The position numbers and the translations under genes are program-made. A DNA stretch of 64,000 bases from Dactylorhiza incarnata. Lineage: Eukaryota; Streptophyta; Magnoliopsida; Asparagales; Orchidaceae. Under the pieces are notes generated by a model, which saw nothing but the letters and a program-made list of their open reading frames with translations, was not told where the DNA came from and did not search any database. The stretch is taken from NCBI GenBank assembly GCA_033032865.1, contig JAWHQI010000065.1, positions 5,456,001 to 5,520,000 of the forward strand, given 5' to 3'. Below, piece after piece: positions 10,347 to 58,454 of the stretch (within the stretch, counting starts at the first letter, position 1; every line of letters starts with the position of its first letter).

Positions 10347-12642
10347 ATGGATGGCAGAGGAGGCTATGCGAGAGGTCTTCGCATTGAGTTGCTTACTCAG
10401 ACCAATTACAAGAAGTGGAAGTCTTGTATGGAGAGTTACCTGCTTGGAGATGACCTATGGGAGGTCGTTGGTGGAGATGAGCAAGAGGTAGTTGTAGCTG
10501 CCGGAGACAATGGTCCAGCTGTGAGAGCTTGGAGGAAGACTAACGCCAAGGCGGAGTTCACTTTGAAGAGAGCAATTTCACCTGACTTGTTCGACCACAT
10601 CATAGGTTGCAAGTCAGCGTCTGGCATCTGGAAATCCCTCGATGGGCTATTGAACTAGAAGAATGTAGCGCGACTACAGTTTTTGGAGAATGAGTTGGCG
10701 CGGTCCACTTAAGGAGAGTTGTCGATATCTACCTTCTTCCTGATGGTGAAGAATCTATGTGCAGAGATCTCGACATTGGATCCTGATGAGCTGATCTCTG
10801 AGGCGAAGCTGAAGAGGCATATACTCCGAGGCTTGCAGAAGGAGTATATTGCGTTTGTTACGTCTGTGCAAGGATGGGCTACTCAGCCCTCCATACTGGA
10901 GCTAGAGAACCTGCTGTCGTCACAGGAGAGGCTGGCGAAGCAGATGGCGGGAGTGTCTATCTCAGGGGGAGATAGCGAGGTGTTGTTCTCAGGCAAGAAG
11001 AAGACCTGTGACAAGAAGAAGAACTCCGGAAATGGGCCGTCAACGTCATCTCAAGGAGATAAAGGGAAGTTCCTTCCTGCTCATGATGAGAGAGGGAGAT
11101 CTCTTTGCTATTCCTGCAAGAAGTACGGGCACATGATAAAGGACTGTCGGTCAAATATGAAGGTCGGGCATGTTGCTGAGAAGGAAGGAGGCCACTAGAG
11201 AGGTAGAGTGAGAGGTGGAGGTCACCAGGGTGGTGAAGGCGGAGACAACTGCTTCCTGGCTGAGATAACGACCACGCCTGTTGATGCCCTAGCCTCCGTA
11301 ATCTTTGAGAATGACTGGATAGTGGATTCTAGTTGCGGGCACCATCTCACTGGAGATGTGTCCAAGTTTGCCTCTCTAAAGCCATATGAAGGAACGAATG
11401 CTATTATCACTGCCGATAATAAGGTGCATCCAGTTGAGAAAGAAGGGACGATATCCCTTGGAAGTGAAGAGAAGCCCGTGACACTGATGAGCGTGTATCA
11501 TGTGTCTGGCATGAAGAAGAATCTCTTCTCGGTTACAAATGCAGTGGATGCAGGATACTACGTGCTGTTTGGACCGAAGGAGGTGAAGTTTCTGAAAAAC
11601 CTGTCGTCGGTTGATGCTGACATCACGCTCACAGGGAGAAGGGTGAAGGATTTGTATGTTCTATCTGCAAATGCCTATGTGGACAAGCTGAAGACAAATG
11701 ACAGCGCTGCGATCTGGCATGATAGCCTAGGTCATGTGGGGATGGACAAGCTGAAGATAATGACTGCAAAGGGCCTGGTGTGCGGCCTGCCTAATCTCTC
11801 TTCCTACGACGACGACCATGTGTGCGAGGGGTGTCAATATGGAAAGTCACATCAACTTCCGTTTGACAAGTCGGAGACAAGGTGTAAGGCACCTCTTGAG
11901 TGCGTACACGCTGGTGTGATGGGGTCGTGCGCCACCCTTACTTATGGATGCAATAAGTATGCGCTGGTTTTGGGGGATGACTATACCTGCTACACGTGGG
12001 TTTATTTTCTGAAGGAGAAGTCAGAAGTGTTTATGAAGTTCCAGGAGTGGAAGGAACTTGTGGAGGTGAGGCTGAACCTGAGGGTGAAGAAGCTGAGAAG
12101 TGATAATGGGGGGGGGGGGAGTTTACGTCTAAAGAGTTTGCTTCTTTCTGCAGGAAATTCGACATTCGGCGAGAGCTCTCTTGCGCTCATACCCCTCAGC
12201 AAAATGAGATTGCAGAGAGAAAGATCTGCCATCTGGTGTAGACAACCAGGAGTTGGCTACATGCCAAGGGGATTCCCAAGGCCTTATGGGCAGAGGGAAT
12301 GACATGTGCAACTCATGTGATCAACCAGCTACCTCTGAGTCCTAACAGGATGGTATCTCCACACCAACTCATGTTCAGGGAGAAGTCAAATGTGGGTCAC
12401 ATGAGAGTGTTTAGTTCTACCTGCTTCGTGCACGTCCCAGATGCCCAGAGAACCAAGTTGGATCTGAAAGCATGGAAGTGTGTCTTCATCGGCTACGATG
12501 AGAGGAAGAAGGGGTGGAAGCACATGGATCCGCAGACTCACAAGTTCGTCGTCTCGCGCGACGTGGTGTTTGACGAACTGATCTCATATCAGGGAGTCTC
12601 TTCTGTGGTGTTGCTGGAGAGTGAAAATTCTAGCAGGTGTGA
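10347..12642 (+). pseudogene. Element B gag, protease and integrase (5' half, interrupted)
   Basis: The ATG at 10347 starts a gag nearly identical to that of A2 (GGYARGLRIELLTQTNYKKW). Stops occur at 10656, about 10710 and 11196, and one at about 12239. Recognisable parts are the zinc knuckle (CYSCKKYGHMIKDC, about 11106-11150), protease (WIVDSSCGHH, in which DSG has become DSS), the integrase zinc region (CEGCQYGK) and the integrase core. At SDNGG a 12-nt G run (12108-12119) breaks the frame at the same place as in A2. The coding region stops at 12642, where the SIRE-like LTR begins after TGTGA. The missing 3' half is at 54791-56930 on the other strand. Confidence 0.92.
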
Positions 12643-14193
12643 TGAAAGTGAGGTTAGATGTTAAATTAACTCTAGGGGGGTGAATAGAGTATTAAAACTT
12701 TTTACTTAATTTTATAGCGGAATTAAATTAGTGATATATATATGTGTGTAGCAGAGTGATTTATAAGAAACTGAAAATAAAACACAGCACAACACAAACA
12801 CAGAAAAGTAAAGCAATCACAGAGGACACAAGTAGCTATAGTAGTTCCCCAATAAACCTAGGTGCGTCTACTCTTCTACCACCCTTGGTAGGAATCCACT
12901 AGGATTTTTGATCAGGTGTCCTAGCACCAATGCACTTTTGATAAGGTGCCCAAAAACCAAACAGGATTTTTTGATCAGGTGTCTTGCCACCAAGAGGTAA
13001 ACTTTTGAAGGGAGTTTTAACCCTGCACAAGATGGAAAGGGAAAGGAGTTTATGAAGTTCTTCTCTGTCAATATGCTGAGAGAAGACTCTAGTGTATGTT
13101 GATGTAGAAAAACTCCCTCTGTCTGATATGAAATTGTTTGACAGTAGATTGGCTGGAATCTTTCTTTTGAATGTATAAACAAATCTTCTTGTAGCTGATT
13201 AAACTGAGAGAATGATTTCTTCAGTTGGTTGTTGCTCTTTTGAAGATCTAAACTTGCAGCTGATCACTGAGAGATGAATGTAGATGTTCTCAGAAAATGA
13301 ATGTTGCTTGAGGAAGAGGATGAAGATGATCTGTGTAGCTTTTCTTTCTTTCTTTCTTCCTGTACAGAAAAATCTGTAATATGTTCCGTCTATCTCCTGT
13401 CGTGAAAAACTATGGGAGTAATACTGTATATCTTCTTCCTTTTTCTCTTTTGAAATCTCTGACAGATATTAAATGCAAATCCCTTATATTAAGGAATATA
13501 ATATATCTGGGAACTGTAAATCTGCTGCACCGTTTACCTTTTTCCTTTTCCATGAAATTTCAGCGACTATAATATTGGAATAATAAAAGGAAATATATTA
13601 TCCTTACTTATCTGATATAATATATCCGTTGCTGTAGTCGATCTGAGTTCAGAGAATGAATAATATAATCTTCTGAAGAAAATATGCTGTGGAGAAATTT
13701 TCGTCGATCTCAACAAATTTCGTCGACCTCAGAGCTGTGTTCGTCGATCTGAAGATATTCGTCGAACGCAGACTGAGTTCGCCGAACTAAGGAATTCGTC
13801 GACCACTGAGCCTGGATAATTTCGTCGACCGCCGAGCCGCTGAGCAAATTTCATCAACCGCTGAGACGGGGTCTGTTCGTCGACCGCTGAGACAATCTGT
13901 TCGTCGACCGCTGAGCTGAGGCACTGAGCCGCTGAGATAGAAGCAAGTCGTTCGTCGAACGTAGAGAGCAGGCCGTTCGTCGAACGCAGAGAACATGTCG
14001 TTCGTCGAACGCAGAGAGCAAGCCGTTCGTTGAACGCAGAGTGTAGTTCGTCGAACGCAGAACCTGAATGATTTCTTGAGTTCTAACAGCCTAAATTCTT
14101 GACCCATTGACTATACATTGGGGTCAACTTGATCCTAGTCAGCAGATAGTGATCCTAGCCCAAATCAGTAATAGGGTTGTTCCAACATTCTCC
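12643..14193 (-). repeat. SIRE-like LTR (3' LTR of the element split by inversion)
   Basis: On the minus strand it begins TGTTGGAACAAC (14193) and ends CACTTTCA (12643). The plus-side flank is TGTGA (12638-12642) in element B. The minus-strand upstream flank (14194 onward) is a polypurine tract (AATAGGGGGAGAA), so this is the 3' LTR. The interval 13700-14075 carries at least a dozen copies of TTCGTCGA followed by ACC or ACG, arranged with GCTGAG or GCAGAG words. It is closer to the LTR at 56931-58454 than to the solo LTR at 62349-63941, as expected for the two LTRs of one insertion. CACCTGATCAAAA-type words recur at 12890-13000. Confidence 0.9.
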
Positions 14194-14610
14194 CCCTATT
14201 TGGGTTAGGACACTATTTGACAACAAAATTGAAAACAAACAAAAACAACAGAGCATATATATATCTGATATATTTTAAATATTTCATCAGATATAAGAAA
14301 TATGATACTCTGAGTTCTGAAACATTTTATTGAAAATAAAACTAATAAAAATACATAATCAGAACCTTTGATTTTCTCTGAATTCTGCTTTCTGAAATCT
14401 GAAATTGTCTGAACTGAGTTCTTGCTTTCTGACTTTCTGATTAGCTGAGCTTGTATCTGCTATGTCTGAATTTGATGTCTGAGCTATATTTGCTAATTTT
14501 CAGCTTTCTGAAATTGTTGATCTGAACTGTAGCTTTATGATCTGAATTTGATATCTGCTTTAACTTCTATATCAAAAGCTGTATGCTGAAATTGCAATAT
14601 ATGAAGCTTG
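14194..14610 (-). mobile_element. 3' end of SIRE-like element interior (non-coding)
   Basis: Read on the minus strand this AT-rich stretch ends in a polypurine tract (14194-14208) directly before the LTR start at 14193. It contains many CTGAATT/CAGATTT words but no coding sequence. Length and position fit the untranslated tail that follows RNase H in SIRE-like elements. Its left neighbour on the minus strand (above about 14610) is unrelated LTR sequence, so the interior is cut here; the matching 5' part is at 58455 to the window end on the plus strand. The breakpoint is uncertain by several tens of bases. Confidence 0.75.
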
Positions 14611-15364
14611 TTCATAAATCATTTCCCTCTTCCTTAAGGTGGGCGGCGATGGAGTGGCGAAAAAGGGCGAAACTGGAGCTCTTGGGCGCGGGAAAGAAGA
14701 TTGATCCGATTAGGGCGGATTCTGCAGCTTTTATAGAAAAAGATCACAAATTTGGTCACGCACGGTCGAACGCATGATCGTGCATGAACCGTGCGATACT
14801 TACCACAGCTCAGAATGGCCAGAAGGGGAGGAAGCGCCCGTGCGTTTTACTTACGCACGATCGAAGCCGATCGTGCGTAAAATCGCACGGGCAAATTCCG
14901 ATTGAATGAAACAGGCACACAGGGGGGCTCGTGCGTTTTACTCATGCACGGTCGAAGCCAATCGTGCGTAAGTACGCACAAGCAAATCCAGCTCTCCATT
15001 TAGCCCAGGGATACACGCACACGGTCAGAGCGATCATGCGTCAAGGAATCGCACGACCTTGTGATTCATGCAGATATGAATTCTAGGCATAACGGAGATC
15101 TGCTCGCTCGTATGCATAACCAAAACATACGCTGGGCAAACACCTCCAGCACAAGCATAATAATAGAAATACAATGGGGAGCACAATGTGCATACCCCCA
15201 GCAATATAGTGCGCAATTCCACACCACAACAGGCCAAAACATGCACTTCGTGTGAGAAGAGTGAACAAGTGAAATATAAGCATTAAAGAACTAAAAGTGA
15301 AGTGCAAGTGCGTGAAAATGAGCTCAGATGAGTCCGAAAAACTCTATATAAATAGGACTCATCA
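14611..15364 (-). repeat. Athila/Tat-type LTR fragment with large hairpin
   Basis: On the minus strand it begins TGATGAGTCC at 15364, like the LTRs of element I (34224-35657), with a TATATAAATAGG stretch just inside. It is cut at about 14610 by the junction with SIRE sequence. The centre has nested palindromes: 14851-14863 and 14868-14880 are perfect 13-bp arms (TTACGCACGATCG) around AAGC, and GCCCGTGCG/CGCACGGGC form outer arms (about 14836-14894). More CGCACGAT words follow to 15060. No second copy is present in the window. Confidence 0.65.
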
Positions 15365-16046
15365 GTAGGCGAGGTCTCCTTCAAAGCCTCCCATTAGCGA
15401 GTTCCTCGACATATCGGTGGAATGATCTCACGAGACGAATTTCTCACTAACAATATCCTTTTCTAACAACACCAACCATCTTGCTGAGGTCCTCTCAACC
15501 GCTAAACTGGTGTGGTATTTTGCGGGGGAGGCTATTCACAGACCTCCCCTAGGATTGTCTATAAATAGGACCTCAGGGGTACAAAAAAAAGCACGTTGCC
15601 CCCCTTCAAGCTCTTTACTTCTCAAGTTTGAGCATTCCTTGTGCCTAGCTCAACTCTTGGCTTTTGATGGGAAGTTCCTATAGACTTCCAGGTACTTGGC
15701 AGGACCTCCTCGCTATAGCACTCGAGTCTTGTGTGTAGACGATCCTAGTTCTTTCTCTCTGTTGCCCTTGCCATCAAGTCTGGGGTGTTAGACCTCGAGA
15801 TTTGTAATATCGGGCTACCCATTTGGTTTGAACTCTTGTGAATTGATTTCTATGTTCCAGCAGATAGTACACCTAGAAAGCGATAAAGAAAATCTTAGAT
15901 CAGCAAACCACTAATCTCCTTTCCCTGCATGCATGGTCACTAAAATAGGTCGTTCATTGTTGACTCAATAACTTCGTAATCCCTCTAGTGCCCACATGGG
16001 CGCTTAATGGGGGTAGGGATGAGGGCAGCATACTCAACACATTGCC
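15365..16046. other. Unclassified tract, possible LTR piece
   Basis: No coding sequence. A TATA box (CTATAAATAGGACC, about 15560) with a purine-rich leader after it suggests part of another LTR in plus orientation, but neither end nor a second copy is visible. The last bases, TTGCC (16042-16046), flank the Tekay LTR and would be its target duplication if the other end were intact. Confidence 0.35.
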
Positions 16047-19000
16047 TGTCACGACCCGCATTTTCCCATGAATTTAATAAATATTATCAGAGCAAGGGGA
16101 AAATACGCATTATGATGCCACGTCCTGCAAGGGACAGCTACAGATGCTCAGGCAGCCACTACTCAGGAAAATTTATAAAAAAAGACATAAATTTTTTTGA
16201 GTTAAATAGAGAATTTATATTTTTTTAGCTTAAGACCGTGTCCCTCGGTCCAGTGGATCAACTAGTCCACGAGTAGAAATCTATACATACGCAACAGAGA
16301 GATAGTTTCATTTTATCCTAAATGAGCATGAAGATCGAACATTCCAGCTATGATATGCACATCCCTAGATTTAGTTTAAGTAAAGAAGGAGTTTTCTACG
16401 ATCTTCAAAGTTGGTGACATTTACTTAAAATCATGCTATGCAAGAATGCCATTTTATATACATAAAATAACTCATGCATCCTAACATAAAACTTTCCAGA
16501 GAGCAAGTATATATATTAACCAGAAAGTAACAGCAAAAAATCTAGCAAGTAATCTAACACTGGAAAACCAAAGCTACAACCGAAGCAAAGGAACAACTAC
16601 CTCACAACAGTGAGGGGAAAGCGGACAATTGCAACTAACCGCAGCTCCGAAGACACCAACTCTACCACCCAAACAACTATTGCTCTGAGCCTGAGACATT
16701 CAAAAGAAAAGAATGCCTCAGCAAGAAAGTGCAAGTGGCAACAAGAATAAAACTAAGATTTTCAATAAACAATGGTTAGCAACAAATCAAAATATCAGAT
16801 TTGCAGGAAAAGAGCTTTTAACAGTTACACAATCATTAGCTTGAAACAACCCAAGCCAGCTCAATCGAGTGCACTCGGTAAGAGAAATGCTTGTACCAAA
16901 AGTAATGGCCATATATATATATATTTAAGCACTTGAGACTGATCAGCTCGAGAAAAGGGCATCATTTAACGTCGGGCAAAACACAAAGCCTCCGATGTAT
17001 GATCCACAAAAAAGGCACTATGACGGTGGTACATTCCACTAACGCTCACAGCCCTACAAACCAATAGGAGTGTTGTGGTGGTGACTCCAGTCCACACAAA
17101 CCAACAACCCAAACAGAGGTACCATGGATGTGACTCTTAGCTCACACAAACAACAGACTCCGACAGAGCATATATAGCTCTCATAACCAACAGGACAAAC
17201 AAAAGAGTGTCAGGCAGGAAAACAGGCTTACATCTAGATTTAACCACAACTCATGACGAGAGAAACAATATGCATATGATTCAGCAATTACTAATTAGAT
17301 CAACTTTCAACTTATAAAAAGGTTGAAGATTTCAGCAAGCCGACACCATACAAGACTTGGTGTCGGAACACAACAATGATAAGCTTAACACGAAGGCCAA
17401 ACACCAGAATAATACTCAACGGTTCATTATAAAACACTCGGTGAGTCCAAACTTGATTCCTAACAAACTTCTCGTAACAACACGACGAAAGCCACGAAAT
17501 AACACCATAAATGATCACTTAACATTACGGTACTTCTCGACGAATAAAACATAACTTCATCTAAAGTCTCAACAAATGAACTCAACGCACTCAACACCAT
17601 AATTTACGATACCCAAGAACACCTGGCAAAAAGTACTTAAATTATTGATAAAACAATTCGGGATATACGATGAAATCGACAGAAAGACTTATCAAAGTCG
17701 ACGGGAAGACTTAACAAAGTTCGACGGGAATATTCAAAGAAAATCGACTGGAAGAGGGCCCGATCAACGGGACGGGATCCTGATTGACAGGACGGGAGCC
17801 CGATCGACGAGGGGTCCCGTCGATTCTAACTTAAAAGATTAACAAACTTGAATTGCCTGCTCTCTCCCGTCGATCGACGGGATGCCGATTTTAACTTGAG
17901 ATTTTCACAAAAAAAAAATCTTCCAACCACCAACACATTCCACCAGAGCTCAAACTGAACTTCAAAACACATGAAAAAGCTTCAAAAGAAATAACCAAAC
18001 ACTCTTAAGAAGAGTAATCTTTTCTAAACCAAGGAAAGTCTTAACAGACTACATGCATCATAACTAAACATATAAATATAGAAACTAAGTACATTCAAGG
18101 GAATGACAGCAGGAATCAAGAAATCCAAACAATAACCATAAGGAAAAGCAACAACCACTAGCCTAAACTCAACAGGCTATGCATACAAGGAAGAAGGAGA
18201 GAACTGAAAAGAAGGACTTTCAATCACACAGCAAAACAAGCCAAAGAGAACTACTACTACTTGAAGAACACAGCTAACAAGAGAGCCTAGCAAAACTAAT
18301 TTCAGGAACAAGGGTCATCAAGGAGAAGGAAAACTATTTGCAGCCCATAACCACTAAGAGAACCTTTACATCCAACCAGATTACTAAATACAGCGAGGAA
18401 GAAGCATTACCCCTCACTGAGAAAGTTAACACAAAATACAAAGAAGACTGAGTCGGAAAGGGTTTAAATACTCAGAAATCAATGACAAATTACACAGAAA
18501 ACCTTGGAGTTCTGGACAAAAATTTTGGACAGAAAGGCTAATAAATTCTGGGCAGAAAGCGAGAAATTTCTGAACAAGTCTATGGTACAAACATGAATCA
18601 AAACACTCAGGAAGAAAGCTGATTTCTGAGAATACACATAAAATAACTTTTCTGAAAGAATCTATCAGAACAACAAGAAAGACCACAGACAAAACTGCAC
18701 TTGCAATAAAGGATAAGAGAAACAAGACAAGGAAAAAAAGTCTCCAACAAGGGAAAAGGGAAAAATCGACGGGAGGTCCCGTCGATCGGCGGGAGGTCCC
18801 GTCGATCGGCGGGCGGTCCCGTCGATTCTGACTTAGAAAAATAGATGAAAGAAGTTTCCCCAACTAAGACCAAAGATCGACGGGTTGTTCCCGCCGATCG
18901 ACGGGAGGTCCCGTCGATCGACCGGAGGTCCCGTCGATCGACGGGATGTCCCGTCGATTTGTACTTATAACACAATTTTCCTTTTTTTCATTTTCTAAAC

Positions 19001-20011
19001 CAATCCAACATACTTATATCCAGACCAGCCCTGGACTACCAGCACAAACCTCAACTCCAACACTTCATTTAGGGTAAGTAACCGAATCAACACTCATTAC
19101 CAAGATACCAAAAATAAGAAAAGAGAAGTAAATTGGAGAAACATGCCAAAGGAAGCAGAAAATAAACCACCACTTGCCTATATCTCGAACCACCAAAATA
19201 CGTCCTCTCAATCCCTCCACGCCAAGGATCGGCTCAAACACGGCCTAAGCATGAAGAATCTACGAAGATTTGGATAAAAAGAGGGTTAGGGCCACTAACC
19301 CTAGCGCTAAAAATCTACGAAGCAGACAAAACTTACTACGCATGCGAAGAGCACGGCGAGAGCTTTCCAAATCTATGCTCCGGCGAAGATTTTGTGCACC
19401 GGAGCTCCAGCGGCGGCGGTCGGAAAGCTCAGGAAAACCACACTCTCTACCTTTTTCTCTCTCTCAAAACCTTTGGCTCGGGAAATTAGGAAGGAAGAAG
19501 AAGATGTAGATGAATAAAACATATATATATAGGTAAACAGATAGTTGATGACAAGTAATTTGTAATAATAACAACAATAATAATAATAGGAATTAGAAAA
19601 GAGGGGCCGAACCAATGGTCGCTGATTCCAACGAAATTCGCACCAAAGACACAAGTCTACGCTACGAATCCAACGGAGATGTCGAAATCAAAATCCGACG
19701 AGCAAATCTCAAGATATAAATTTTCTAAGTTTACGGCGAACGATAATTCTACAAACCTTTGGAAAAACTCTGGGGATCCAATATCACTCGGATCGCAACG
19801 AGACTTCGACGAGCATTTCTAAAATTAATTAATTTAAAATTTTTAACGCAAAATCTTTCAACTCCGGTACACTCCAAAAAATTTGGTCGGCTTTACCAAA
19901 TGAACGCACAAACGATGGAGCACTGCTAACTCCGCACTAACATAACGCCCTTGCGTCAAAAATGATGTCAAAGAAGGATAAAATAATTCCTGAAAATTCA
20001 GGGGCGTTACA
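16047..20011 (-). repeat. Element F 3' LTR, complete, 3965 bp
   Basis: It is an uninterrupted copy and shows the empty sites of two insertions found in the other LTR: CAAGG at 19223-19227, and the CCTCG site near 16988, here CCTCC. Two clusters of the word TCGACGGGA occur at about 17690-17890 and 18766-18957. The second holds palindromes TCGACGGGA-GG-TCCCGTCGA at 18766-18785 and 18898-18917, and a tandem run of the same 20-mer to 18957. Open frames through it (for example 18426-18975, minus) are LTR composition and have no recognisable domain. Confidence 0.88.
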
Positions 20012-20257
20012 GTCACCCCACCAAAAAGAAAGTTTTGTCCCAAAACTTAGAACCAAAACTTAGAACTCGAATGAATAAAAAGGGCAAAGGGGGAGATAAG
20101 CTCACACTCGTTGGATAGAAATGCTAACCGAAGAGGGCTAGGAGAACGGATGCGAATAAGATTTCTTCTTAGCACTCAAAATAGATCACCTGATCCCTGA
20201 TCAAGGTTCACGATAAGTATCCCAAATCCAATACCTCCCAATTAACCTAAACGAGGG
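20012..20257 (-). mobile_element. Element F interior, part next to the 3' LTR
   Basis: Non-coding. On the minus strand it ends in the polypurine region just before the LTR (20012-20045). Element D interrupts it after GAGGG (20253-20257); it resumes at 25830. Confidence 0.75.
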
Positions 20258-20922: not shown

Positions 20923-20940
20923 TGGTATCAGAGGAGTCGA
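20923..20940 (+). promoter_or_regulatory. Primer binding site of element D
   Basis: TGGTATCAGAGGAG follows the LTR at once and matches the methionine tRNA-type copia primer site, with the final C of GAGC replaced. Confidence 0.84.
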
Positions 20941-41341: not shown

Positions 41342-41765
41342 CTTCTCTTGCTTAGATGTTTGTTAGATAAACTTTCTGCATGCGTTCGCACCTGAGCAAA
41401 ACGTGGATCGCTTGGCACCTCTGGCTCTCCCAGCATGAGCCCTAGCGAACAGGGTCGGCGTTGCCTAACCTCGCTCACCACAACCTTTGCACGACTGGAT
41501 GCTACTTATTGATTCCCACGCCGCCGGTCCCACCTGACTCGCATATTTAGGTGTTACTTAGAGACTCTCCGAGCGTTTCGCGATCCAAGGATAGCCTTGA
41601 AATATTCTGTCGCCACCATGTCCAGTCGTCTCGCTATAACCACTTGACTTAGATATTTACCATTTGATATCGCTTTTTATTTTTGTGCGAGCGATCCCCG
41701 GGGCTCGCCCAGCCTAGGCCTCGCATTGAGAGATTTTGATAGCCAGGACTAGCATAAGCCGTCTC
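41342..41765 (-). mobile_element. Element G interior, unique non-coding stretch
   Basis: G sequence resumes after the CGTAG copy. No open frame with a known domain. It borders the 96-bp array; GCTCGC-type words appear near 41690. Confidence 0.5.
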
Positions 41766-42920
41766 CTTGCCAGCCTCTCCGCGAAATCGACCTGACCCAC
41801 CGGCTAATGAGAGCCCGACAACGGGATTGTCCGGGGCACTCCGGCATAAAACATTTGATACCTTGCCAGCCTCTCCGCGAGATCAACCTGACCTACCGGC
41901 TAGTGAGAGCCCAACAGCGGAATCATCCGGGGCATTCCACCATAAAACACTTGATACCTTGCCAGCCTCTCCGCGAGATCAACCTAACCCACCGACTAGT
42001 GAGAGCCCGACAGCGGAATCATCCGGGTCATTCCAGCATAAAACACTTGATACCTTGTCATCCTCTCCGCGAGATCAACATGACCCACCGGCTAGTGAGA
42101 GCCCGACAGCGGGATCATCCGGGGCACTTCAGCATCAAACATTTGATACCTTGCAAGCCTCTCCGCGAGATCAACCTGACCCACTGGCTAGTGTGTGCCC
42201 GGCAGCGGAATCATCCAGGGCATTCCAACATAAAACACTTGATACCTTGCAAGCCTCTCCGCGAGATCAACCTGACCCACCGGCTAGTGAGATCCCGGCA
42301 GCGGAATAATCAGGGGCATTCCAGCATAAGACACTTGATACCCTGCCAGCCTCTCCGCGAGATCAACCTGACCCACCGGCTAGTGAGAGCCCGGCAGCGG
42401 TATCGTCCGGGGCACCCCAGCATAAAACATTTGATACCTTGCCAGTCTCTCCGCGAGATCAACCTGACCCACCAGCTAGTGAGAGCCCGACAACGGGATC
42501 GTCCAGGGAACTCCAGCATAAAACATTTGATACCTTGTCAGCCTCTCCGCGAGATCAACCTGACCCACCGGCTAGTGAGAGCCGGGCAGCAGAATCAGCC
42601 GGGGCATTCCAACAAAAAACACTTAATACCTTGCCAGCCTCTCTGCGAGATCAACCTAACCCACCGGCTAGTGAGAGTCCGGCAGCGGAATGATCTGGGG
42701 CATTCCAACATAAAACATTTGATACCTTGCCAGCCTCTCTGCGATATCAACCTGACCCACCGGCTAGTGAGAGACCAGCAGCGGAATCATCCGGGGCATT
42801 TCATCATAAAACACTTGATACCTTGCGAGCCTTTACGCGAGATCAACCTGACCCACCGGCTAGTGAGAGCCCGGCAGCAGAATCTTCTGGGGCATTCCAG
42901 CATAAAACACTTCGAGGACT
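41766..42920. repeat. Tandem repeat, 96-bp unit, about 12 copies, in element G
   Basis: Starts of successive units (CTTGCCAGCCTCTCC or close variants) fall at 41766, 41863, 41959 and 42055, then about every 96 bp up to 42823. Since 96 is divisible by 3, three or more frames stay open along the array, giving 32-residue protein repeats. None has a start, context or composition that supports a real protein. It lies between integrase and the antisense genes; comparable satellite-like arrays are known in Tat/Ogre elements. Units differ by several substitutions, so the array is not freshly made. Confidence 0.92.
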
Positions 42921-44233
42921 CATGCTTAGAAGAAACATTGAAGACAACACATGATGAGTCAAATATGTAATAAATCAATATGAAAAGTTTAAGGGTAGAA
43001 ACGCTTTAGGTCGTCCCCACTCCGAGCCCGGCCAAGAGGTACCTCTTCCACATCATGGAGGTGGTACCCTCCTGACTTGAGCACTTTATCTACAATGCAC
43101 GGCCCTTCCCAGTTGGGATCGAGCTTTCCGACCGCGGCCCCTCTCCCGGCCGCGTCAACCTTTTTCAGGACTAGATCTCCTTTCTCGAACTACTATACTT
43201 GGATATGTTTGTCGAAGTACCGAGTCATCCACCGCTTGACTTCCTCCTGTTGGACGGTGGCTAAGTCCCGGAGCTCTTCAACCAGGTCCAAGGATAGCCT
43301 TTGCTCTACTTCATTCTCCACTAGCCATTCTTCATCCCCTTCACCCGCGGCGACCACCCTAGGGGATTTCACCTCGAACTCTATTGGAAGGACGGCCTCG
43401 GATCCGTGAGAGAGCTTGAACGGAGTATCCCCCGTGTCCGTGTTTGGAGTGGTCCTCAAGGCCCAGAGGACCGAGGGTAACTGCTCTACCCAGTTGCCCC
43501 TGAGGTTCTCGACCCTCTTCTTCAGCAAGTTCACAATTAATTTATTTGCTTCCTCCACTTGCCCATTGCTCCTCGGGTGGTGGACGGACGCAAACAGAAG
43601 ATCTCTGCCAAGTTGTGTGCAGAAGCTGACGAACTCGCCGCTGGCAAACTGCGGCCCATTGTCTGTCATTATGGCTAATGGGAGCCCGTGCCTGCAAATT
43701 ATCTCACCCCATATAAAATTTCTTACTACTTGGGACGTTACCTTGGCCAGTGCCTTCACCTCCATCCACTTGGAGAAATAATCGATCATCACTAGTAAGA
43801 ACTTTCTTTGACCACTTGCTTAGGAGAAAGGACCGACCAGGTCCAAACCCCATATTGCAAAGGGCCAGGGGGCCATGATGGTTCTAAGTCTTTTGGCCGG
43901 CAGGAGCTGGAGAGGGGCAAACAGTTGGCACTTCAAGCACTTCCTTGCGAACTCCGCTGCGACCTTGCTGAGGGTGGGACAAAAGTAGCCTCGCCTCAGC
44001 ACTTTCCCCTCCTAGGTTCGGCTCCCGGAGTGGCTGCCATACTCCCCCGAGTGGATCTCCTCCAGGACCCTCGGGACCTCCTCCGACACACAATGGGCTA
44101 GGAGCCCCGAGAGCGTCTTCCAGTATAGTCCTCCTGCATGCAAAGAGTAGTATGCTGGAAGAGGGGCACCTGTATGCAAAGAGTAGTATGCCCCTGATGG
44201 GAGTTGCTTTTTTCCTTCTTCCCGGACCAGCAC
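42921..44233 (-). pseudogene. Element G integrase and RNase H remnant
   Basis: On the minus strand the zinc-binding N-terminus reads HSGEYGSHSGSR, GYFCPTLSKVA and CLKCQLFAPLQ (about 44060-43900), then PWPFAIWGLDLVGPFS. The core (43792-43193) has MMIDYFSKWMEVKALA, TDNGPQFASGEF and HHPRSNGQVEEANK, with the three acidic catalytic residues. The C-terminal domain (GDLVLKKVDAAGRG, WEGPCIVDKV, YHLHDVEEVPLGRA) continues to a stop at about 42989. Stops break it near 43805 and around 44000. RNase H is nearly gone: only a short SSVLVREEGKK piece remains near 44225, followed by a duplicated segment of about 38 bp. This is a Tat-type integrase. Confidence 0.88.
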
Positions 44234-46180: not shown

Positions 46181-46221
<41 letters not shown>

Positions 46222-47521: not shown

Positions 47522-47554
47522 GTCTCTTCCTTGGAACTTTCATGTACTATCTGC

Positions 47555-48275: not shown

Positions 48276-50587
48276 CCTCGGGTGTATGACCCACACATAA
48301 AAGGCACTGTGAAGGTGGTACATTCCACTAACACTCACAACCTTACAAATCAACAAGAATGTTGTGGCGGTGACTCCAGTCCACACAAACCAATAACCCA
48401 AACAGAGGTACTGTGGCAGTGACTCTTAGATCACACAACCAACATAGCAAACATAGCTCTCATAACCAATAGGCCAAACAAAAGAGTGTCAGACAGGAAA
48501 ATAGGCTTACATCTGGATTTAGCCACAACTCATTATAAGAGAAATAGTAAGCACATGATTCAACAATTAATAATTAGATCAACATTCAACTTATAAAAAG
48601 GTTGAAGATTTCAGCAAGCCGACACCATACAAGAATTGGTGTCGGAACACGACAATGATAAGCTTAACACGAAGGCCAAACACCAGAATAATACTCAACG
48701 GTTCATTAGAAAACACTCGGTGAGTCCAAACTTGACTCCTAACGAACTTCTCATAACAACACGACGAAAGCCACGAAATAACACCATAAAAGATCACTTA
48801 ACATTACGGGACATCTCAACGAATAAAACATAACTTCATCTAAAGTCTCAACAAATGAACTTAACGCCATAATTTAAGATGCCCAAGAATACCTGGCAAA
48901 AAGGACTTAGATTATTGATGAAACAATTCGAGATATACGATGAAATCGACAGAAAGACTTATCAAAAGTCGACGGGAAGACTTAACAAAAGTCGACGGGA
49001 GGACTTAACAAAAGTCGACGGGAAGACTTAACAAAAGTCGACGGGAAACTTCAATGAAAATCGCCTGGAAGAGTTCCCGATCGACGAGACGGGAGCCCGA
49101 TCGACGGGGGGTGGGGGTGGGGGGGGGGTGCCGTCGATTCTAACTTAAAAGATCAACAAACTTGAATTGTCTGCTCTCTCCCATCGATTGACGGGACTGG
49201 AGGTCGATCGACGGGTCGGGATGCCAATTTTAACTTGAGATTTTCACAAAAAAATTCTTCCAACCACCAACACATTACACCAGAGCTCAAACTGAACTTC
49301 AAAACACATGAAAAGCATCAGAAGAAATAAACAAATACTCTTAAGAAGAGTAATCTTTTCTAAACCATGGGAAGTCTTAACAGACTACATGCAGCATAAC
49401 TAAACATGTAAATATAAAAACTATCTATATTCAAGGGAATGACAGCAGCAATCAAGAAAGCCAAACAACATCCATAAGGAAAAGCAACAACCACTAGCCT
49501 AAACTCAACATGTTATGCATACAAGGAAGAAGAAGAGGACTAAAAAGAAGGACTTTCAATCACACAGCAAAACAAGTCAAAGAGGACTACTGCTACTTGA
49601 AGAACACAGCTAACAAGAGAGCCTAGCATAACTAAATTTTAGGAACAAGGGTCATCAAGGAGAAGAACTGCTATTTGCAGCCCATAACCACTAAGAGAAC
49701 CCTTACATCCAGCCAGATTACTAAAGACAGTGAGGAAGAGGCATTACCCCTCACTGAGAAAGTTAACACAAAATGCATAGAAGACTGGGGCTGGAAGGGT
49801 TTACATACTCAGAAATCAATTGCAGATTGCACAGAAAACCTTGGAGTTCTGGACAGAATTGAAATTTTGGACAGAAAGGCTAATAAATTCTGGGCAGAAA
49901 GAGAGAAATTTCTGAACAAGTCTATGGTACAAACTGGAATCAAAACACTCAGGAAGAAATCTTATTTCTGAGAATACACAGAAAATAACTTTTCTGAAAG
50001 AATCTATCAGAACAACAAGAAAGACCACAAACAAAATTGCACTTGCATTATAGGAGAAGAGAAACAAGACAAGGAAAAAGGCTCCAACAAGGGAAAAGGG
50101 CAAAATCGACGGGATGTCCTGTCGATCGGCGGGCGTCCCCATCGATCGGCGGGCGGTCCCGTCGATCGGCGGGCGGTCCCATCGATCGACGGGAAGACCC
50201 ATCGATTCTGACTTAGAAAAATAGATGAAAGAAGTTTCCCCAGGTAAGACCAAAGATCAGCGGAATGGTTTCACCGATCGACGGGAGGTCCCGTCGATCG
50301 ACGGGATGCCCCGTCAATTTTTACTTAGCACACAATTTCCCTTTTTTTCATTTTCTAAACAAATCCAACATACTTCTATCCATCCCTGCCCTGGACTACC
50401 ATCACAAACCTCAACTCCAACACTTCAGTTAGGGTAAGTAACCCAGTCAACACTCATTACCAAGATACCAAAAATAAGAAAAGAGAAGTAAATTGGAGAA
50501 ACATGCCAAAGGAAGCAGAAAACAAACCACCACTTGCCTATATCTCGAACCACCGAAATATGGCCTCTCAAGCCCTCCACGCCAAGG
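48276..50587 (-). repeat. Element F 5' LTR, part 2
   Basis: Continues F after G (CCTCG at 48276-48280). It aligns with about 16990-19227 of the complete LTR. The TCGACGGGA words recur at 48968-49230 and 50105-50320; a G-rich run is near 49107-49129. It ends with CAAGG (50583-50587), the target duplication of the next insertion. Confidence 0.88.
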
Positions 50588-50641
50588 TGTTAGAACTTAG
50601 TCTTAATTTGGATTAGGATCCCAACTCAAATAGGGGGAGAT

Positions 50642-52301
50642 TGTTGGAACCCTAGGTTTGATTTGAGTTAGGATCCACCTTTAGTGTCTAAGTTTATATC
50701 ATAACATATATTATAACTTAGATTGAATCCTGTTAAGGTAAAAGGCTGAAAAGAAATATTCAATAATATAAATAATATAAATATATAAATATATATAATA
50801 GGCTGAAAAATATACATATTTAATAGGCAGAAAAATAAGAGAAGAAATAAAATTTCATATATTCACTGCGTTCGACGAACATCGAACGGCGCTCAGCATT
50901 CGTCGAACGGCGCTCGACGAACTATCAAGGAAGCTGCGTTCGACGAAATCCAAGTAGCGGTCGACGAATTCCAACCAGAACAGCGGTCGACGAATTCTCA
51001 GATCAGCGGTCGACGAAAAGAGGAGATCGACGAACCTTCAGTGAGGCGCTCGAAGAATTTTAACAGATGTTCAGAAACAGTAAATAAAATAATGAGGTCG
51101 ACGAATCAAATGATGAGCTCGACGAACTTGACCCTGAGCTCGACGAATTTCTGCAGCATTATTTATATATCATTAAATATTACTTATATGCTGTCAGACT
51201 TTATTATAGTAATATTTATTATTTATTCTATTTATATATTGCTATATATTACTGATCTGACATTACAGCGTGAAGCATTTAATGTTATAGCCGTTGCAGC
51301 AAAAGCAATAAATGATGTAGCCGTTGCAGCAAGCTAAAGAAAGAAATTGTTCTGCTCGAGGATTTGGGAAATGAAAGAGATATTACTCCTTTCCTCTTTG
51401 GTCGGCAAGGATTCAAACAGATAAATATACATCAGATAATATATATCAGAATAGATATATAGTTGTTATCTCTCGACAGATCATATATATATATATTGCT
51501 GTACAGATTTCATAATATACACAGAATAGATATTACATCCTCTGTACAGGAAAAAGAGGAAACAGAGAAGAAGAAGAACAGAGCAAAAAACAGAACAGAT
51601 CCAAATATATTATCTTCTTTTTGCTAACCATTTCTTGCAGATCTTCTATAACCTGAGACACCAAATCAATATCATTTGCTCAGGGAGAAGAAGAAGAGGA
51701 TCACAATCTAGAGAAGAAGCTGCATACTCAAATCTGTCATCTAAACTAAATCAGACAGGGGAGCCTTCTTCAACATCATCTTCATCAAGTGTCTTCTCAG
51801 CCAAGAGAAGAACAACATCTGTTTTTGTTTTCTTTATTTCTCCCATCTTGTAAAGGGTTAAAACTCCCTTCAAAAGTTTACTCCCGGTAACAGGCCACCT
51901 TAGCAAAAACCTGCATCTTGGTTTATAAGCATTTGATCAAAAGCTTATAGGTGAATTGGGCACCTGATCAAAACCCTCATTGGTGTGTGGACACCTGATC
52001 AAAAATACCTTGGTGTGAGGGCACCTGATCAACAACCTCTTAGTGGATTCCTACCAGTGGGTAGAAGAGTAGATGTACCCAGTTGAGGGGAACTACTATA
52101 TTTCCTTGTGTCATCTGGATTGCTTTGGTTTGCTTGTTGTTTTATTTTCTTATTTGCCGTGCTGTGATATTTATGCCCACTAAGTGTTTGTGTTTATATT
52201 TCAATCAGCAAACTCACTTATATATTTTATATATATCACTTATTTTGAAACAAAGTTAAACAAGAGTTTTAATTATATAATAAGAACTAAACTCACTTTC
52301 A
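50642..52301 (+). repeat. SIRE-like LTR (internal full copy)
   Basis: Begins TGTTGGAACCC and ends CACTTTCA before a primer site. Words GTTCGACGAA and GGTCGACGAA, plus their complements, crowd 50870-51145. At 50899-50921 the module TTCGTCGA-N7-TCGACGAA is complete. CACCTGATCAAAA words recur at about 51960-52030, as in the other SIRE-like LTRs. AT-rich sequence fills the middle. Confidence 0.88.
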
Positions 52302-53212
52302 ATTGGTATCAAAGCAGGTTGATTTTATCAATCACCCTCATCAGAGGATATCAATTGTCCCTTTCAATTGGTATCAGAGGAAGTTGATTTTTCACACAGG
52401 CTAACACCTGAATCACAAAGATCACTTAGTTCTTATTTTGTTTTTAAGAAGGTTTTTCCAAATGACACATTCAGATTTTTTAATTTCTGATCCACCTTTA
52501 TGTAATTTGGATAGTTTTAATTTATGGCAAGTTAGAATCAGATTATATATGAATGCAATAGATGAAGATATCTACAAATCTGTTTTGACAGGAACTTCAT
52601 CCTCAATTTCATCATGTGATGATCACATAAGGCTGAAAAGTGCTGATGCCAAGGCCATGGAGATATTGGCTAAATCAATGACAACAGACATTCTTCTCAA
52701 AGTGGCTGATTGTACTTCAGCAAAGGCCATCTGGAACTCCCTCTCTAGGATGGTAAATGAATCCATTCCTACTTCTTCTACTAACTGCATTTTTGATGCA
52801 GAACCAGCATTTACTCTAAGTGAGAAGAAGAAAAAGAAGAACAACAAGCCAGAAACTTCTGTTTAATGGCTATATATGGTTCAGATTACATATCAGATGC
52901 AGAATCTGAACAAGAAAAGGTAAAAGAGGTAACATCATTTCCTAATTTTACCTCTGAAAATTTCAGATCTGTTTTCAATTCACCTTGTGCAGGTTTATAA
53001 ATTTCTGAAAACAGAATCAGTAAAAAGCTAATAATAAACAAATTAATTTCTGATAAAATTAAAGAAGATTTTAAAATAACAGAAAAACAAATTATCTGTT
53101 TAGAAAATAACTTCATTAAGGCTGAAAACCTTAAACAATTAATTAAAGCTAAAGAAAAAGGAATTTCTTATGATCAGCAAATCTTATAACAAAAGGAATT
53201 TCTTATACTTTA
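52302..53212 (+). pseudogene. SIRE-like interior remnant: primer site(s) and gag pieces
   Basis: The primer site TTGGTATCAAAGCAGG follows the LTR at 52303; a second copy, TTGGTATCAGAGG, stands at about 52369 in a partial duplication that includes CTTTCA. ATG at 52462 starts a 134-codon frame to 52866: a copia gag N-terminus (DPPLCNLDSFNLWQVRIRLYM, SADAKAMEILAKSM) that jumps after LSRMVNE into a Lys-rich piece from later gag, so about the middle of gag is missing. The rest (52867-53180) resembles the acidic, coiled-coil-like gag end with stops. Confidence 0.75.
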
Positions 53213-54337
53213 ATGAAATATTACCTATATGATGTCAGACTTTATTATAGTAATATTTATTATTTATTCTATTTATATATTGCTATATATTACTGATCTG
53301 ACATTACAGCGTGAAGCATTTAATGTTATAGCCATTGCAGCAAAAGCAATAAATGTTGTAGCCGTTGCAGCAAGCTAAAGAAAGAAATTGTTCTGCTCGA
53401 GGATCTGGGAAATGAAAGAGATATTACTCCTTTCCTCTTTGGCCGGCAAGGGTTCAAACAGATAAATATACAGTAGATAATATATATCAGAATAGATATA
53501 TAGTTGTTATCTCTCGACAGATCATATATATTGCTGTATAGATTTCATAATATACACAGAATAGATATTACATTCTCTGTACAGGAAAAAGAGGAAAAAG
53601 AGAAGAAGAAGAACAGAGCAAAAAGAAGAACAGATCCAAATATATTATCTTCTTTTTGCTAACCATTTCTTGCAGATCTTCTACAACCAGAGACACCAAA
53701 TCAATATCATTTGCTCAGGGAGAAGAAGAAGAAGAGGATCACAATTTAGAGAAGAAGCTCCATACTAAAAGCTGTCATCTAAACTAAATCAGACAGGGGG
53801 AGCCTTCTTCAACATCATCTTCATCAAGTGTCTTCTCAGCCAAGAGAAGAACAACATATATTTTGTTTTCTTTATTTCTCCCATCTTGTAAAGGTTTAAA
53901 ACTCCCTTCAAAAGTTTACTCCCGGTGACAGACCACCATAGCAAAAACCTGCATCTTGGTTTATAAGCACCTGATCAAAAGCTTATAGGTGAATTGGGCA
54001 CCTGATCAAAACTCCCATTGGTGTGTGGACACCTGATCAAAAATACCTTGGTGTGAGGGCACCTGATCAACAACCTCCTAGCGGATTCCTACCAGTGGGC
54101 AGAAGAGTAGATGTACCTAGTTGAGGGGAACTACTATATTTCCTTGTGTCATCTGGATTGCTTTGGTTTGCTTGTTTTATTTTCTTATTTGCTGTGGTGT
54201 GATATTTATGCCCACTAAGTGTTTGTGTTTATATTTCAATCAACAAACTTACTTATATATTTTATATATATCACTTATTTTGAAAAAAAAGTTAAATAAG
54301 AGTTTTAATTATATAATAAGAACTAAACTCACTTTCA
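53213..54337 (+). repeat. SIRE-like LTR, 5'-truncated copy
   Basis: Aligns with about 51170-52301 of the preceding LTR from ATGATGTCAGACTTTATT onward. It lacks the first 520 or so bases, including the whole TTCGTCGA array. It ends CACTTTCA at 54337 before CAAGG. Confidence 0.88.
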
Positions 54338-54790
54338 CAAGGATCGGCTCAAACACGGCCTAAGCACGGAGAATCTATGAAGATTTGGACAAAAAGAGGA
54401 TTAGGGTCGCTAACCCTAGCGCCAAAAATATACGAAGCGGACAAAACATACCACGCACACGAAGAGCACGACGAGAGCTTTCCAAATCTATGCTCTGGCG
54501 AAGATTTTGTGCACCTGCTCAGGAAAACCACGCTCTCTCCCTCTTTCTCTCTCTCTCTAAACCTCTGGCTCAGGAAATTAGGAAGGAAGAAGATGAAGAA
54601 TAAAACATTATATATATATAGGTAAACAGATAGTGGATGATAGTAATTTATAATAACAACAATAATAATAGGAAAAAGAAAAGAGGGGTCGAACTAGTGG
54701 TCGCCGATTCCAATGAAATTCGCACCGAAGACACAAGTCGGCGCTACGAATCCAACGGAGAAGTCGAAACCAAAATCCGACGTGCAAATC
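54338..54790 (-). repeat. Element F 5' LTR, part 3, truncated
   Basis: Corresponds to about 19223-19715 of the complete LTR. Sequence homology stops after GCAAATCTCAAG; the remaining 250-300 bp of the LTR, including the TGTAACGCC start, are missing, and element B sequence follows. A 4-bp overlap (GCTA/TAGC) at the join is compatible with end joining. Confidence 0.8.
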
Positions 54791-55107
54791 TCAAGCTACC
54801 CACTAGCTCCTGCGCCATCTCAGCGATCTCACACAGCTCGCAAAGCTTACTCTAGGTTGCTCCGAACTCACTCCGAGTTCACTCCCACTTGAGACCGCCT
54901 ATTCGGACCGCCCAAGCTCCTCTGCCGAACTTACTCCAAGTTCTCTCTCACTGAGACCGCCTATTCAGACCACTCAAGTCTCCTCCTTTCTCTGATATAC
55001 TCTGTAGGGGGGTTGCCCCCTTATTTATAGATTCTGGAGTCGCCACCTGGAAGTTGGGCTAGCGTCGGCGCTAGCCCCTGCGCTAGCTCACTTCACAATT
55101 CTCAACA
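54791..55107 (-). repeat. Element B 3' LTR, truncated
   Basis: On the minus strand it begins TGTTGAGAATTG at 55107, after the polypurine tract (AAGGGGGAG, 55108-55117), and matches 9651 to about 9967 of the 5' LTR. The remainder is lost at the join to element F. The minus-strand TATA box is near 55022. Confidence 0.9.
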
Positions 55108-56930
55108 CTCCCCCTTGAAGTGAGCTCCGTCAATCAATCCGAGCAGCGAGCGAAGCCTTCTGAATGGCCCCGCGGATAGGGGCTTCGTGAAAATATCCGC
55201 TACATTGTCTTCGCTCCGCACATTCTCCACCGCAATCAAGCCACTCAGCACCTTCTCTCGGATAAAGTTATGCCCGATCTCAATGTGCTTTGTTCTTGCG
55301 TGACACACTGGGTTGGTTACTAGTTTCAAAGCGCTCTCGTTGTTGCCGTGAAGAACAGTAGGTCCATTGACCTTCTTGTCCACGTCTTCCATCAGCCTCC
55401 TCAGTCAGACACACTCCTGGGTTGCTATGCATGATGTCTTGTACTCAGCCTTTGTGGTGGATAAGGAGATAGATCCTGCTTCTTGCAACACTATGAGATA
55501 GCAGCAGCTTCACATAGAAACACATGACCTGAGGTTGACTTGCGATCATCAGCGTCACCTCCGTAATCTGCATCTGTGTACCCATGCAGCTTGAAGTCAG
55601 ACTTCTCTCCATAAGACAACCCCATCTCAAGGGTTCCCTTCACGTACTTTAGAATCCCTTTGGCTGCCTCTAGATGAGGCTTCCACGGCTCCTGCATATA
55701 CCGACTAAGTCGGCCGACGACAAAAGCAATGTCTGGCCTCGTGATAGTCAGATAGATTAAGCTCCCCATCAGTGCCCAGAAGATCTTTGGATCAGGAAGA
55801 ATCCTCCCTTCTTCTTTTCGAATCTTAAGCCCAACCTCTAGTGGAACAGAGCTGCTCTTCCCCTCTTTCATGTCAAATCTCTCGATGATCTTCTCAGCGT
55901 AAGCTCTCTGGGAAACGAACAGTCCGCCACTTCTCTTCTCAACCTGAAGACCAAGGAAATGGTGCAGTTCACCAAGATCCTTCATCTCAAAGCGAATAGA
56001 GAACTGCCATCTCAGTGCCGCAACCGCTTCACTGTTGTTCTCGGTAACGATAATGTCGTCGACGTACAGCAACACCAGAACATGAAGATCTCCACTTTTC
56101 TTCACGAACATGCTAGAGTCTGAGTCTGAGGCATCATAACCACAGAAATGTAGGTACTCCACAATCTTCCCATACCAGGCTCTCGGCGCCTGTTTCAAAC
56201 CGTCGAGGGCCTTCTTCAGATTGCACACATGATCTGGGTGTGACTTGGACACGTATCCAGGTGGTTGCACCATGAATATGTCCTTGTCAATTTCTCCATA
56301 CATGTATGAATTCTTCACATCAAGCTGCCACAGCTTCCACGCTCGGCAAGCTGCCAGAGCAATTACCGTCCTCACCCACGTCATCTTCGCCACAGGACTA
56401 AATGTCTCCTCGTTGTCCTCTCCATAGGTTTGTGAGAAACCTCGAGCGACAAGCCTAGCCTTGTACCGCTCTACTCCTCCGCCAGCTTTCTTCTTAACCT
56501 TGTACACCCATTTGCATGTGACAGGTTTGATGCCCTCCACAATGGGAAAAAATTCTCATGTCTCATTCTTCGCCAGAGCTTCCATCTCTTCGTTCATTGC
56601 CACGTCCCACTCCTTAATGCCAACATCATCCTCAAAGCAGGCAGGTTCCCTCTCGTCGAGTGGTCCTGCGAAGAAGCAAGAGACCAAACTCACAAAGTTC
56701 CCCTCTTTATAACGAGAAGGCGGGATGATGGTCTGCTTCGGACACCTCAAGGCTTGACCACTCTCTACCACTCTGGTATACTCCTCCTCTGCAACTCTTC
56801 TCCCCTCATCTCTTGGAGCACTGCTTCCCCTGCTTCCTGAACATGAAGGCCCCCCCTCCGAGCTAGATGGCGATGGTGCACTGGGAGATGGCTCCAACTG
56901 CATAGAGTCCTCAATGACTCTCTCTTCACA
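55108..56930 (-). pseudogene. Element B reverse transcriptase and RNase H (3' half, inverted)
   Basis: On the minus strand the sequence starts TGTGAAGAGAGAG (56930), the direct continuation of the B reading frame that stops at 12642, as judged from element A2. It covers the Ser/Pro-rich linker, RT (CKWVYKVKKKAGG, ARLVARGFSQTYG, YVDD at 56055-56066, HFLGLQVEK) and RNase H (DADYGGDADDRKSTSG; KHIEIGHNFIREKV). The frame is broken near 56540 and by a TGA near 55407. With the 5' half it would give a complete copia element of the same family as A2. Confidence 0.92.
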
Positions 56931-58454
56931 TGTTGGAACAACCATATTACTGATTTGGGCTAGGATCACTATCTGCTGACTAGGATCAAGTTGACCCCAA
57001 TGTATAGTCAATGGGTCAAGAGTTTAGGCTGTTAGAACTCAAGAAATCATTCAGGTTCTGCGTTCGACGAACGACTTGCTCTCTGCATTCGACGAACGGC
57101 ATGTTCTCTGCGTTCGATGAATGGCCTGCTCTCTGTGTTCGGCGAACAGCTTGCTTCTATCTCAGCGGCTCAGCGCCGCAGCTCAGCGGTCGATGAAAAG
57201 ATTGTCTCAGCGGTCCACGAAATTTGCTCAGTGGCTCAGCGGTCGACGAAATTATCTAGGCTCAGCAGTCGATGAATTCCTCAGTTCGACGAACTCAGTC
57301 TGCGTTCGATGAATATCTTCAGATCGATGAACACAGCTCTGAGGTTGGCGAAATTTGTTGAGATCGACGAAAATTTCTCGACAACAGATTTTCTTCAAAA
57401 GATTATATTATTCATTCTCTGAACTCAGGTCGACTACAGCAACAGATCTATTATATCAGATAAGTAAGGATAAGATATTTCCTTTTATTATTCTAAGATT
57501 ATAGCCGTTGGCATTTCATGGAAAAGGAAAAAGATAAACGGCGCAACAGATTTACATTTCCCAGATATATTATATTCCTTAATATAAGGGATTTGCATTT
57601 AATACCTGTCAGAGATTTCAAAAGAGAAAAAGGAAGAAGATATACAGTATTACTCCCATAGTTTTTAACACAGGAGATAGACAGAACATATTACAGATTT
57701 TTCTGTACAGGAAGAAAGAAAGAAAGAAAGAAACGCTACACATATCATCTTCATCCTCTTCCTCAAGCAACATTCATTTTCTAAGAACATCTACATTCAT
57801 CTCTCAGTGATCAGTTGCAAGTTTGGATCTTCAAAAGAGCAACAACAAATTGAAGAAATCATGCTCTCAGTGTAATCAGCTACAAGAAGATTTGTTTATA
57901 CATTCAAAAGAAAGCTTCCAGCCAATTTACTGTCAAACAATTTTAGATCAGACAGGGGGAGCTTTTCTACATCAACATCCACTAAAGTCTTCTCTTAGCA
58001 TATTGACAGAGAAGAACTTCATAAACTCCTTTCCCTTTCTATCTTGTACAGGGTTAAAACTCCCTTCAAAAATTTACCTCTTGGTGGCAAGACACCTGAT
58101 CAAAAAATCCTGTTTGGTTTTTGGGCAACTTATCAAAAGCTCATTGGTGCTAGGACACATGATCAAAAATCCTAGTGGATTCCTACCAAGGGTGGTAGAA
58201 GAGTAGACGTACCCAAGTTTATTGGGGAACTACTATAGCTCCCTGTATCCTCTGTGATTGCTTTACTTTTCTATGCTTGTGTTGTGCTGTGTTTTATTTT
58301 CAGTTTCTAATAAATCACTATGCTACACATATATATATATATATATCACTAATTTAATTCCGCTATAAAATATGGTAAAAAGTTTTAATACTCTGTTCAC
58401 CCCCCCCCCCCCCCCCCCCCTCTAGAGTTAATTTAAGATCTAACCTCACTTTCA
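56931..58454 (+). repeat. SIRE-like 5' LTR (partner of 12643-14193)
   Basis: Begins TGTTGGAACAACC and ends CACTTTCA before the primer site. The left flank is the reverse complement of TGTGA. TTCGACGAA-type words occupy 57055-57370, many with CG changed to TG (CGATGAA), more than in the partner LTR. A 21-nt C run is at 58400-58420, where the partner has 6 bases. The length of 1524 bp is close to the partner's 1551. Confidence 0.9.

What the first reader, a model, noticed from the sequence alone, without database searches (positions are those of the whole stretch)
12638..58454. Split target duplication shows a large inversion through a SIRE-like element nested in copia B
TGTGA stands at 12638-12642, directly before the LTR at 12643, at the point where the gag-integrase half of B ends. 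Its reverse complement (TCACA, 56926-56930) stands directly before the LTR at 56931, where the RT half of B begins on the other strand. One LTR is preceded by a polypurine tract and the other followed by a primer site, so they are the 3' and 5' LTRs of one element. In the original order, B held a full SIRE-like element flanked by TGTGA on both sides. One breakpoint is in the SIRE interior near 14610; the other should lie beyond the window, in the same SIRE interior. The inverted block would be at least 49 kb.
Basis: partly seen in the sequence, partly recalled or inferred. Interest (0 to 1): 0.93.

Follow-up and report, generated by a model that had tools for sequence, protein, structure and literature searches.

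The report
A 50-kb inversion splits a retrotransposon
A stretch of repeat-rich, probably plant DNA about 50,000 bases long appears to have been flipped end to end, and the two separated halves of two nested mobile elements mark where it broke; this is a clear example of a known kind of rearrangement.

Summary
A SIRE-like copia element had inserted into copia element B, duplicating TGTGA. Its 3' LTR (12643-14193, minus) and 5' LTR (56931-58454, plus) now face opposite ways, each still joined to its own half of B. The pair differs by K2P 0.064, against 0.142 and 0.155 to the solo LTR at 62349-63941, and is a fully supported sister pair among 11 LTRs. Six other LTR insertions in the window have same-strand duplications.

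I followed the contig past the window. The plus-strand SIRE interior stops at 65208, against another LTR whose homology starts at 65210. In two uninterrupted relatives (L035, L033), 65208 and 14637 map to adjacent positions, so the element was cut at one point without visible loss. Simplest reading: a two-break inversion of about 50.57 kb (14638-65208), with about 5 bases of microhomology at the left join.

Not shown: the other ancestral join, because both flanking LTRs are truncated and their missing ends were not found in the 177 kb held. A third truncated join at 54794/54795 needs a separate event. Reads could not be mapped, and several genome searches did not complete. An ordinary rearrangement, unusually well documented.

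The parts
9651..12642 (+). Copia element B, left part: 5' LTR (starts 9651, preceded by AAAAC) to integrase region, up to the SIRE insertion point
12638..12642 (+). TGTGA, left copy of the SIRE target duplication
12643..14193 (-). 3' LTR of the SIRE-like element
14194..14637 (-). Last about 440 bases of the SIRE interior, with PPT next to the LTR
14627..14638 (.). Left inversion breakpoint; 14627-14637 can be assigned to the SIRE or to U, with CTCTT (14627-14631) the clearest overlap
14638..15364 (+). U, truncated D-like LTR on the inside of the left breakpoint
54795..55107 (-). B 3' LTR, truncated at 54795 where it meets a TGTCACGACCC LTR copy
55089..56930 (-). B right part (RT half), with TCACA at 56926-56930 as the second, inverted copy of the target duplication
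56931..58454 (+). 5' LTR of the same SIRE-like element
58455..62348 (+). SIRE interior, primer site to reverse transcriptase
62349..63941 (-). Solo LTR with its own TAAGG duplication, nested in the SIRE
63942..64000 (+). SIRE interior resuming after the TAAGG duplication; continues outside the window to 65208, where the right breakpoint lies

Best explanation
A SIRE-like Ty1/copia element inserted into copia element B, on the opposite strand, and duplicated TGTGA. Later two double-strand breaks occurred: one about 440 bases inside the 3' end of the SIRE interior, the other about 50 kb further along in the ancestral order, between two other LTR remnants, U and V. The 50.57 kb between them (14638-65208) was rejoined in reverse by end joining. 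At the left join about 5 bases (CTCTT) fit either side; the right join is abrupt, with at most one unassigned base. Shown by sequence: the split of both nested elements, the inverted target duplication, and the cut of the SIRE at a single point without visible loss. Inferred: that the whole 50.57 kb moved as one block in one event, that end joining did it, and that the join at 54794/54795 is an independent deletion.
For: Inverted TGTGA/TCACA exactly at the LTR edges. B halves meet in A and in 8 other genomic copies. LTR pair K2P 0.064 against 0.142 and 0.155 to the solo LTR; sister pair with support 1.000 and 100 among 11 LTRs. Of 16 stretches fetched at LTR hits, 8 hold both the left and the right interior parts, all 8 in the expected order and strand; in L035 the right part ends at 4523 and the left begins at 4514, in L033 at 548 and 557. 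From 65210 the sequence is another high-copy LTR. The six other LTR insertions tested have same-strand duplications. No N in the window or in the 12 neighbouring stretches. Neither join lies in long homology that an assembler could have confused (inference).
Against: The second ancestral adjacency cannot be demonstrated: U lacks its upstream part and V about 140 bases, and neither missing part was found in the 177 kb held, so DNA was lost at or before the event. A third truncated join (54794/54795) lies inside the block, which a simple inversion does not need. The base-level junction rests on two relatives (L035, L033); the other six with both parts align less far or have gaps between them. 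No reads, related species or second haplotype were available.
Confidence: 0.78

Rival explanations
1. A three-break rearrangement: only 54795-65208 (about 10.4 kb: B-right, SIRE 5' LTR and most of the interior) was flipped, and 14638-54794 was brought in between in the same or another event.
For: There are three truncated joins (14637, 54794, 65208), not two, and the old flank-to-flank adjacency is not demonstrable.
Against: It needs more breaks than one inversion plus one deletion; nothing in the sequence requires the 40-kb segment to have moved separately.
Confidence: 0.1
2. Misassembly: the joins at 14637 and/or 65208 are not real.
For: Repeat-dense DNA; no reads could be mapped.
Against: The two cut ends are complementary in the SIRE to within about 10 bases, which independent false joins would not give; no N in the stretches held; no long repeat at the joins.
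Confidence: 0.05
3. Other elements (14638-54794 and more) inserted into the SIRE interior, and a small inversion between them and B's 3' LTR followed.
For: About 5 bases are shared at the two SIRE ends, which could be read as a target duplication.
Against: Neither break end is an element terminus: the U copies L041, L042 and L044 continue past 14627 and the four V copies continue past 65210. The lost end of B's 3' LTR was not found downstream (weak partial matches only). Element W, which would lie inside the insert, is not younger than the SIRE (K2P 0.088 against 0.064, p 0.08).
Confidence: 0.03
4. Inverted duplication: two copies of B with its SIRE, each later truncated in a complementary way.
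For: Produces the same local picture if truncations happened to be complementary.
Against: Neither B/SIRE junction shows a second copy among the 39 other hits listed in each (capped lists); complementary truncation at one base of the SIRE would be a coincidence.
Confidence: 0.02

Closest known systems
Inversions whose ancestral state is read from retrotransposon target duplications (human-chimpanzee study, PMC2603318; passages read)
   Same: Target duplications of elements at inversion breakpoints are used to tell which order is ancestral.
   Different: There recombination between two inverted elements made chimeric elements with unmatched duplications. Here one element was cut in two, apparently by end joining, and its duplication still matches, in inverted orientation.
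Rearrangements in maize centromere 10 (PMC4806543; passages read)
   Same: Partial and recombined LTR elements, inversions, and microhomology at joins in repeat-dense plant DNA, attributed there to double-strand break repair.
   Different: In the passages read, the inversions are inferred from gene order against sorghum and from centromere repeats. Here both ends of one inversion are placed to about 10 bases from the repeats alone.
SIRE (Maximus) lineage of Ty1/copia elements (recalled; no call tested the lineage)
   Same: TGTTGGAAC LTR start, LTRs of about 1.5 kb, copia domain order, five AGGGGGA tracts in the 3' part of the interior.
   Different: No tree with named references was made. A region present after the RNase H end in the neighbouring L016/L017 copies, perhaps envelope-like (recalled), is missing or much shortened here.

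Membership tests
Two-break chromosomal inversion | First ancestral adjacency restored by reversing the block | tested here: met
   SIRE interior: 65208 and 14637 map to adjacent positions in L035 and L033
Two-break chromosomal inversion | Second ancestral adjacency restored by reversing the block | tested here: inconclusive
   U (inside 14638) and V (from 65210) are both truncated; missing parts not found in the 177 kb held
Two-break chromosomal inversion | Block and marker junctions present once | tested here: inconclusive
   No second copy of either B/SIRE junction among the 39 other hits listed in each, but these lists are capped
Two-break chromosomal inversion | Joins supported by spanning reads | not testable with these tools
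   No reads available
Ty1/copia LTR retrotransposon (the split element) | Integrase before RVT_2, two LTRs with TG..CA ends, primer site, PPT, 5-base target duplication | tested here: met
   no gag family was found in the open frame 58714-59895
SIRE/Maximus lineage | Placement by an RT tree; envelope-like ORF after RNase H | not tested
   No named references used; the corresponding region looks lost or shortened here

The most novel reading that the evidence does not exclude
The SIRE first left B as a one-LTR circle by recombination between its LTRs, leaving a solo LTR between the two TGTGA copies. The circle opened at the point now seen at 14637/65208 and reintegrated nearby, between U and V. 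A recombination between the solo LTR and the inverted circle LTR then flipped the DNA between them. This gives the same present order from a circular intermediate that re-entered next door.
Probability: 0.04. Interest if true: 0.6.

Novelty: new member of a known kind. Interest (0 to 1): 0.35.

Why it matters
Nested elements with a split target duplication let a medium-sized inversion be placed to about 10 bases, and dated as younger than one insertion, from a single genome without an outgroup. Scanning large plant genomes for LTR pairs whose target duplications match only as reverse complements could give an inversion catalogue that gene-order maps would miss. This locus is a worked example, not a new mechanism.

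Tried and rejected
Nested-insertion model (insertion in the SIRE, then a small inversion): set aside because the break ends are not element termini. Breakpoint 2 at 64755, where strong homology to L016/L017 stops: rejected because L022, L033 and L035 run on to 65208; the L016/L017 copies differ in the region after RNase H. The TGTCACGACCC LTR copies as an LTR pair for dating: dropped, since no PPT-like sequence precedes 26836 and they may be separate insertions. Taken as a pair they have more transversions than the SIRE pair (127 of 3585 against 28 of 1497, p 0.0012), which would speak against a nested insertion, but I do not use it. The E pair K2P (0.235) was dropped because I had set its boundaries wrongly. 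A search for the lost end of B's 3' LTR nearby gave only weak partial matches. Genome searches for the closest relative of the 5' LTR (56931-58454), for the stretch across breakpoint 2 (64800-65600), for the tail of the TGTCACGACCC LTR (19300-20200) and for B's left flank (9360-9650) were sent but did not complete, so whether the LTR at 54794 is really truncated, or ends there, is not settled by copies. Ages: SIRE K2P 0.064 is about 2.5 My at 1.3e-8 per site per year (recalled rate, used) or about 1 My at the 3.3e-8 of PMC4806543; the organism is unknown, so neither is firm.

Full report
The window is part of contig C2806 (positions 5456001-5520000) of a 3.27-Gb assembly of 3184 contigs. I fetched the contig to 85 kb right and 28 kb left of the window, 177 kb in all, and use window coordinates continued beyond 64000.

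The observation. TGTGA at 12638-12642 precedes a minus-strand LTR (12643-14193), and TCACA at 56926-56930 precedes a plus-strand LTR (56931-58454). The polypurine side of the first and the primer-site side of the second can be read. Element A, a relative of B in the window, matches B-left up to A 6489 and B-right from A 6482. Comparing, 8 other B-like copies have hits to the two halves that meet on the expected strand with 10-11 bases of overlap. None of the 39 other hits listed in either call spans a B/SIRE junction; the longest B-side hits run 14 and 10 bases past the LTR edge. Only 40 candidates were scored in each call, so these lists cannot prove single copy.

The LTRs. K2P between the two is 0.064 (1497 columns), against 0.142 and 0.155 to the solo LTR at 62349-63941. 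In a tree of 11 LTRs they are sisters with support 1.000 (FastTree) and 100 (IQ-TREE). B's own LTRs, of which the right one is truncated, differ by K2P 0.086 over 313 columns. That fits B being older than the SIRE, but the difference is not significant (p 0.21). As an internal control, the six other LTR insertions whose two ends I could read (A, C, W, D, E and the solo LTR) have same-strand 5-base duplications.

Following the element out of the window. The SIRE interior runs from 58455 to 62348, is interrupted by a solo LTR with its own TAAGG duplication, resumes, and continues past 64000. Strong homology to the copies at L016/L017 stops at 64755, because these differ in the region after RNase H. 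I therefore fetched 16 stretches at the 18 LTR-side hits. Eight of the 16 (L021, L022, L023, L025, L029, L032, L033, L035) contain both a part of the right-hand interior and a part of the left-hand interior, in SIRE order and strand in all eight. L023 and L025 gave identical figures and may be one copy held twice. The other eight lacked one or both parts. In L035 the right part ends at 4523 (our 65208) and the left part begins at 4514 (our 14637); in L033 the figures are 548 and 557. L022 also ends at 65208 on the right but aligns on the left only to 14395; L032 reaches 14622. The rest align less far or with gaps. So the element was cut once, without visible loss, on the evidence of two relatives at base level.

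The joins. At 65208 SIRE homology ends, and at 65210 homology to another high-copy LTR (V) begins. V runs to 66778 and lacks about 140 bases that the four copies fetched have. At 14627-14637 homology to the SIRE and to a D-like LTR (U) overlaps; about 5 bases, CTCTT, fit both best. U runs to about 15364 and lacks the upstream part seen in its relatives. A third join, 54794/54795, links B's truncated 3' LTR to a TGTCACGACCC LTR copy that stops there, while its relative at 16046-19716 is followed by different sequence.

Interpretation. Reversing 14638-65208 restores the SIRE, and with it B with one target duplication on each side. That is the simplest history: two breaks and end joining, about 50.57 kb inverted, after the SIRE insertion. 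The right join is abrupt and the left has a short ambiguity; neither lies in long homology, so recombination between repeats is unlikely to be the cause (inference). The old flank-to-flank adjacency cannot be checked, because U and V are both truncated and the missing parts were not found in the 177 kb held. A three-break event that flipped only 54795-65208 is therefore not excluded.

Misassembly. Reads were not available. The complementarity of the two cut ends, the absence of N in the stretches held and the absence of long repeats at the joins make an artefact unlikely, but reads must settle it.

Literature. Using target duplications to read the ancestral state of inversions is published (PMC2603318, passages read). 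Partial and recombined LTR elements, microhomology and inversions are described for maize centromere 10 (PMC4806543, passages read). I also saw passages of PMC2773423 and PMC5379124; neither bears directly on this. The lists returned by five literature searches showed no title or abstract describing an inversion read from one LTR element cut in two with its duplication inverted. I read passages only, so this is no claim of priority.

Noticed in passing
L015-L017, window-continued coordinates 121347-148608: Tandem SIRE-like arrangement LTR-interior-LTR-interior-LTR on the minus strand, the two interiors sharing the middle LTR (137460-138978).
   Followed up: partly
41753-42970: Open frame of 405 codons made of about twelve 96-base tandem repeats inside element W; related arrays at 114904-115797 (L014) and in L020.
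   Followed up: no
18715-18958 and 50075-50318: Clusters of short palindrome-like units (such as CGACGGGAGGTCCCGTCGAT) in both copies of the TGTCACGACCC LTR.
   Followed up: no
54794/54795: Truncated 3' LTR of B joined to a TGTCACGACCC LTR copy with about one shared base; an independent deletion or part of the same event.
   Followed up: partly
62392-62413: Run of about 20 G near the end of the solo LTR; a similar G run occurs in the V copy L038.
   Followed up: no
50588-54337: SIRE-like element E with TSD CAAGG and an interior of only about 0.9 kb, apparently internally deleted.
   Followed up: no
L043, 262-650: A V-like LTR sits directly beside U-family sequence in another genomic copy, in the orientation that the uninverted order would have here; probably coincidence (62% identity to V).
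   Followed up: no
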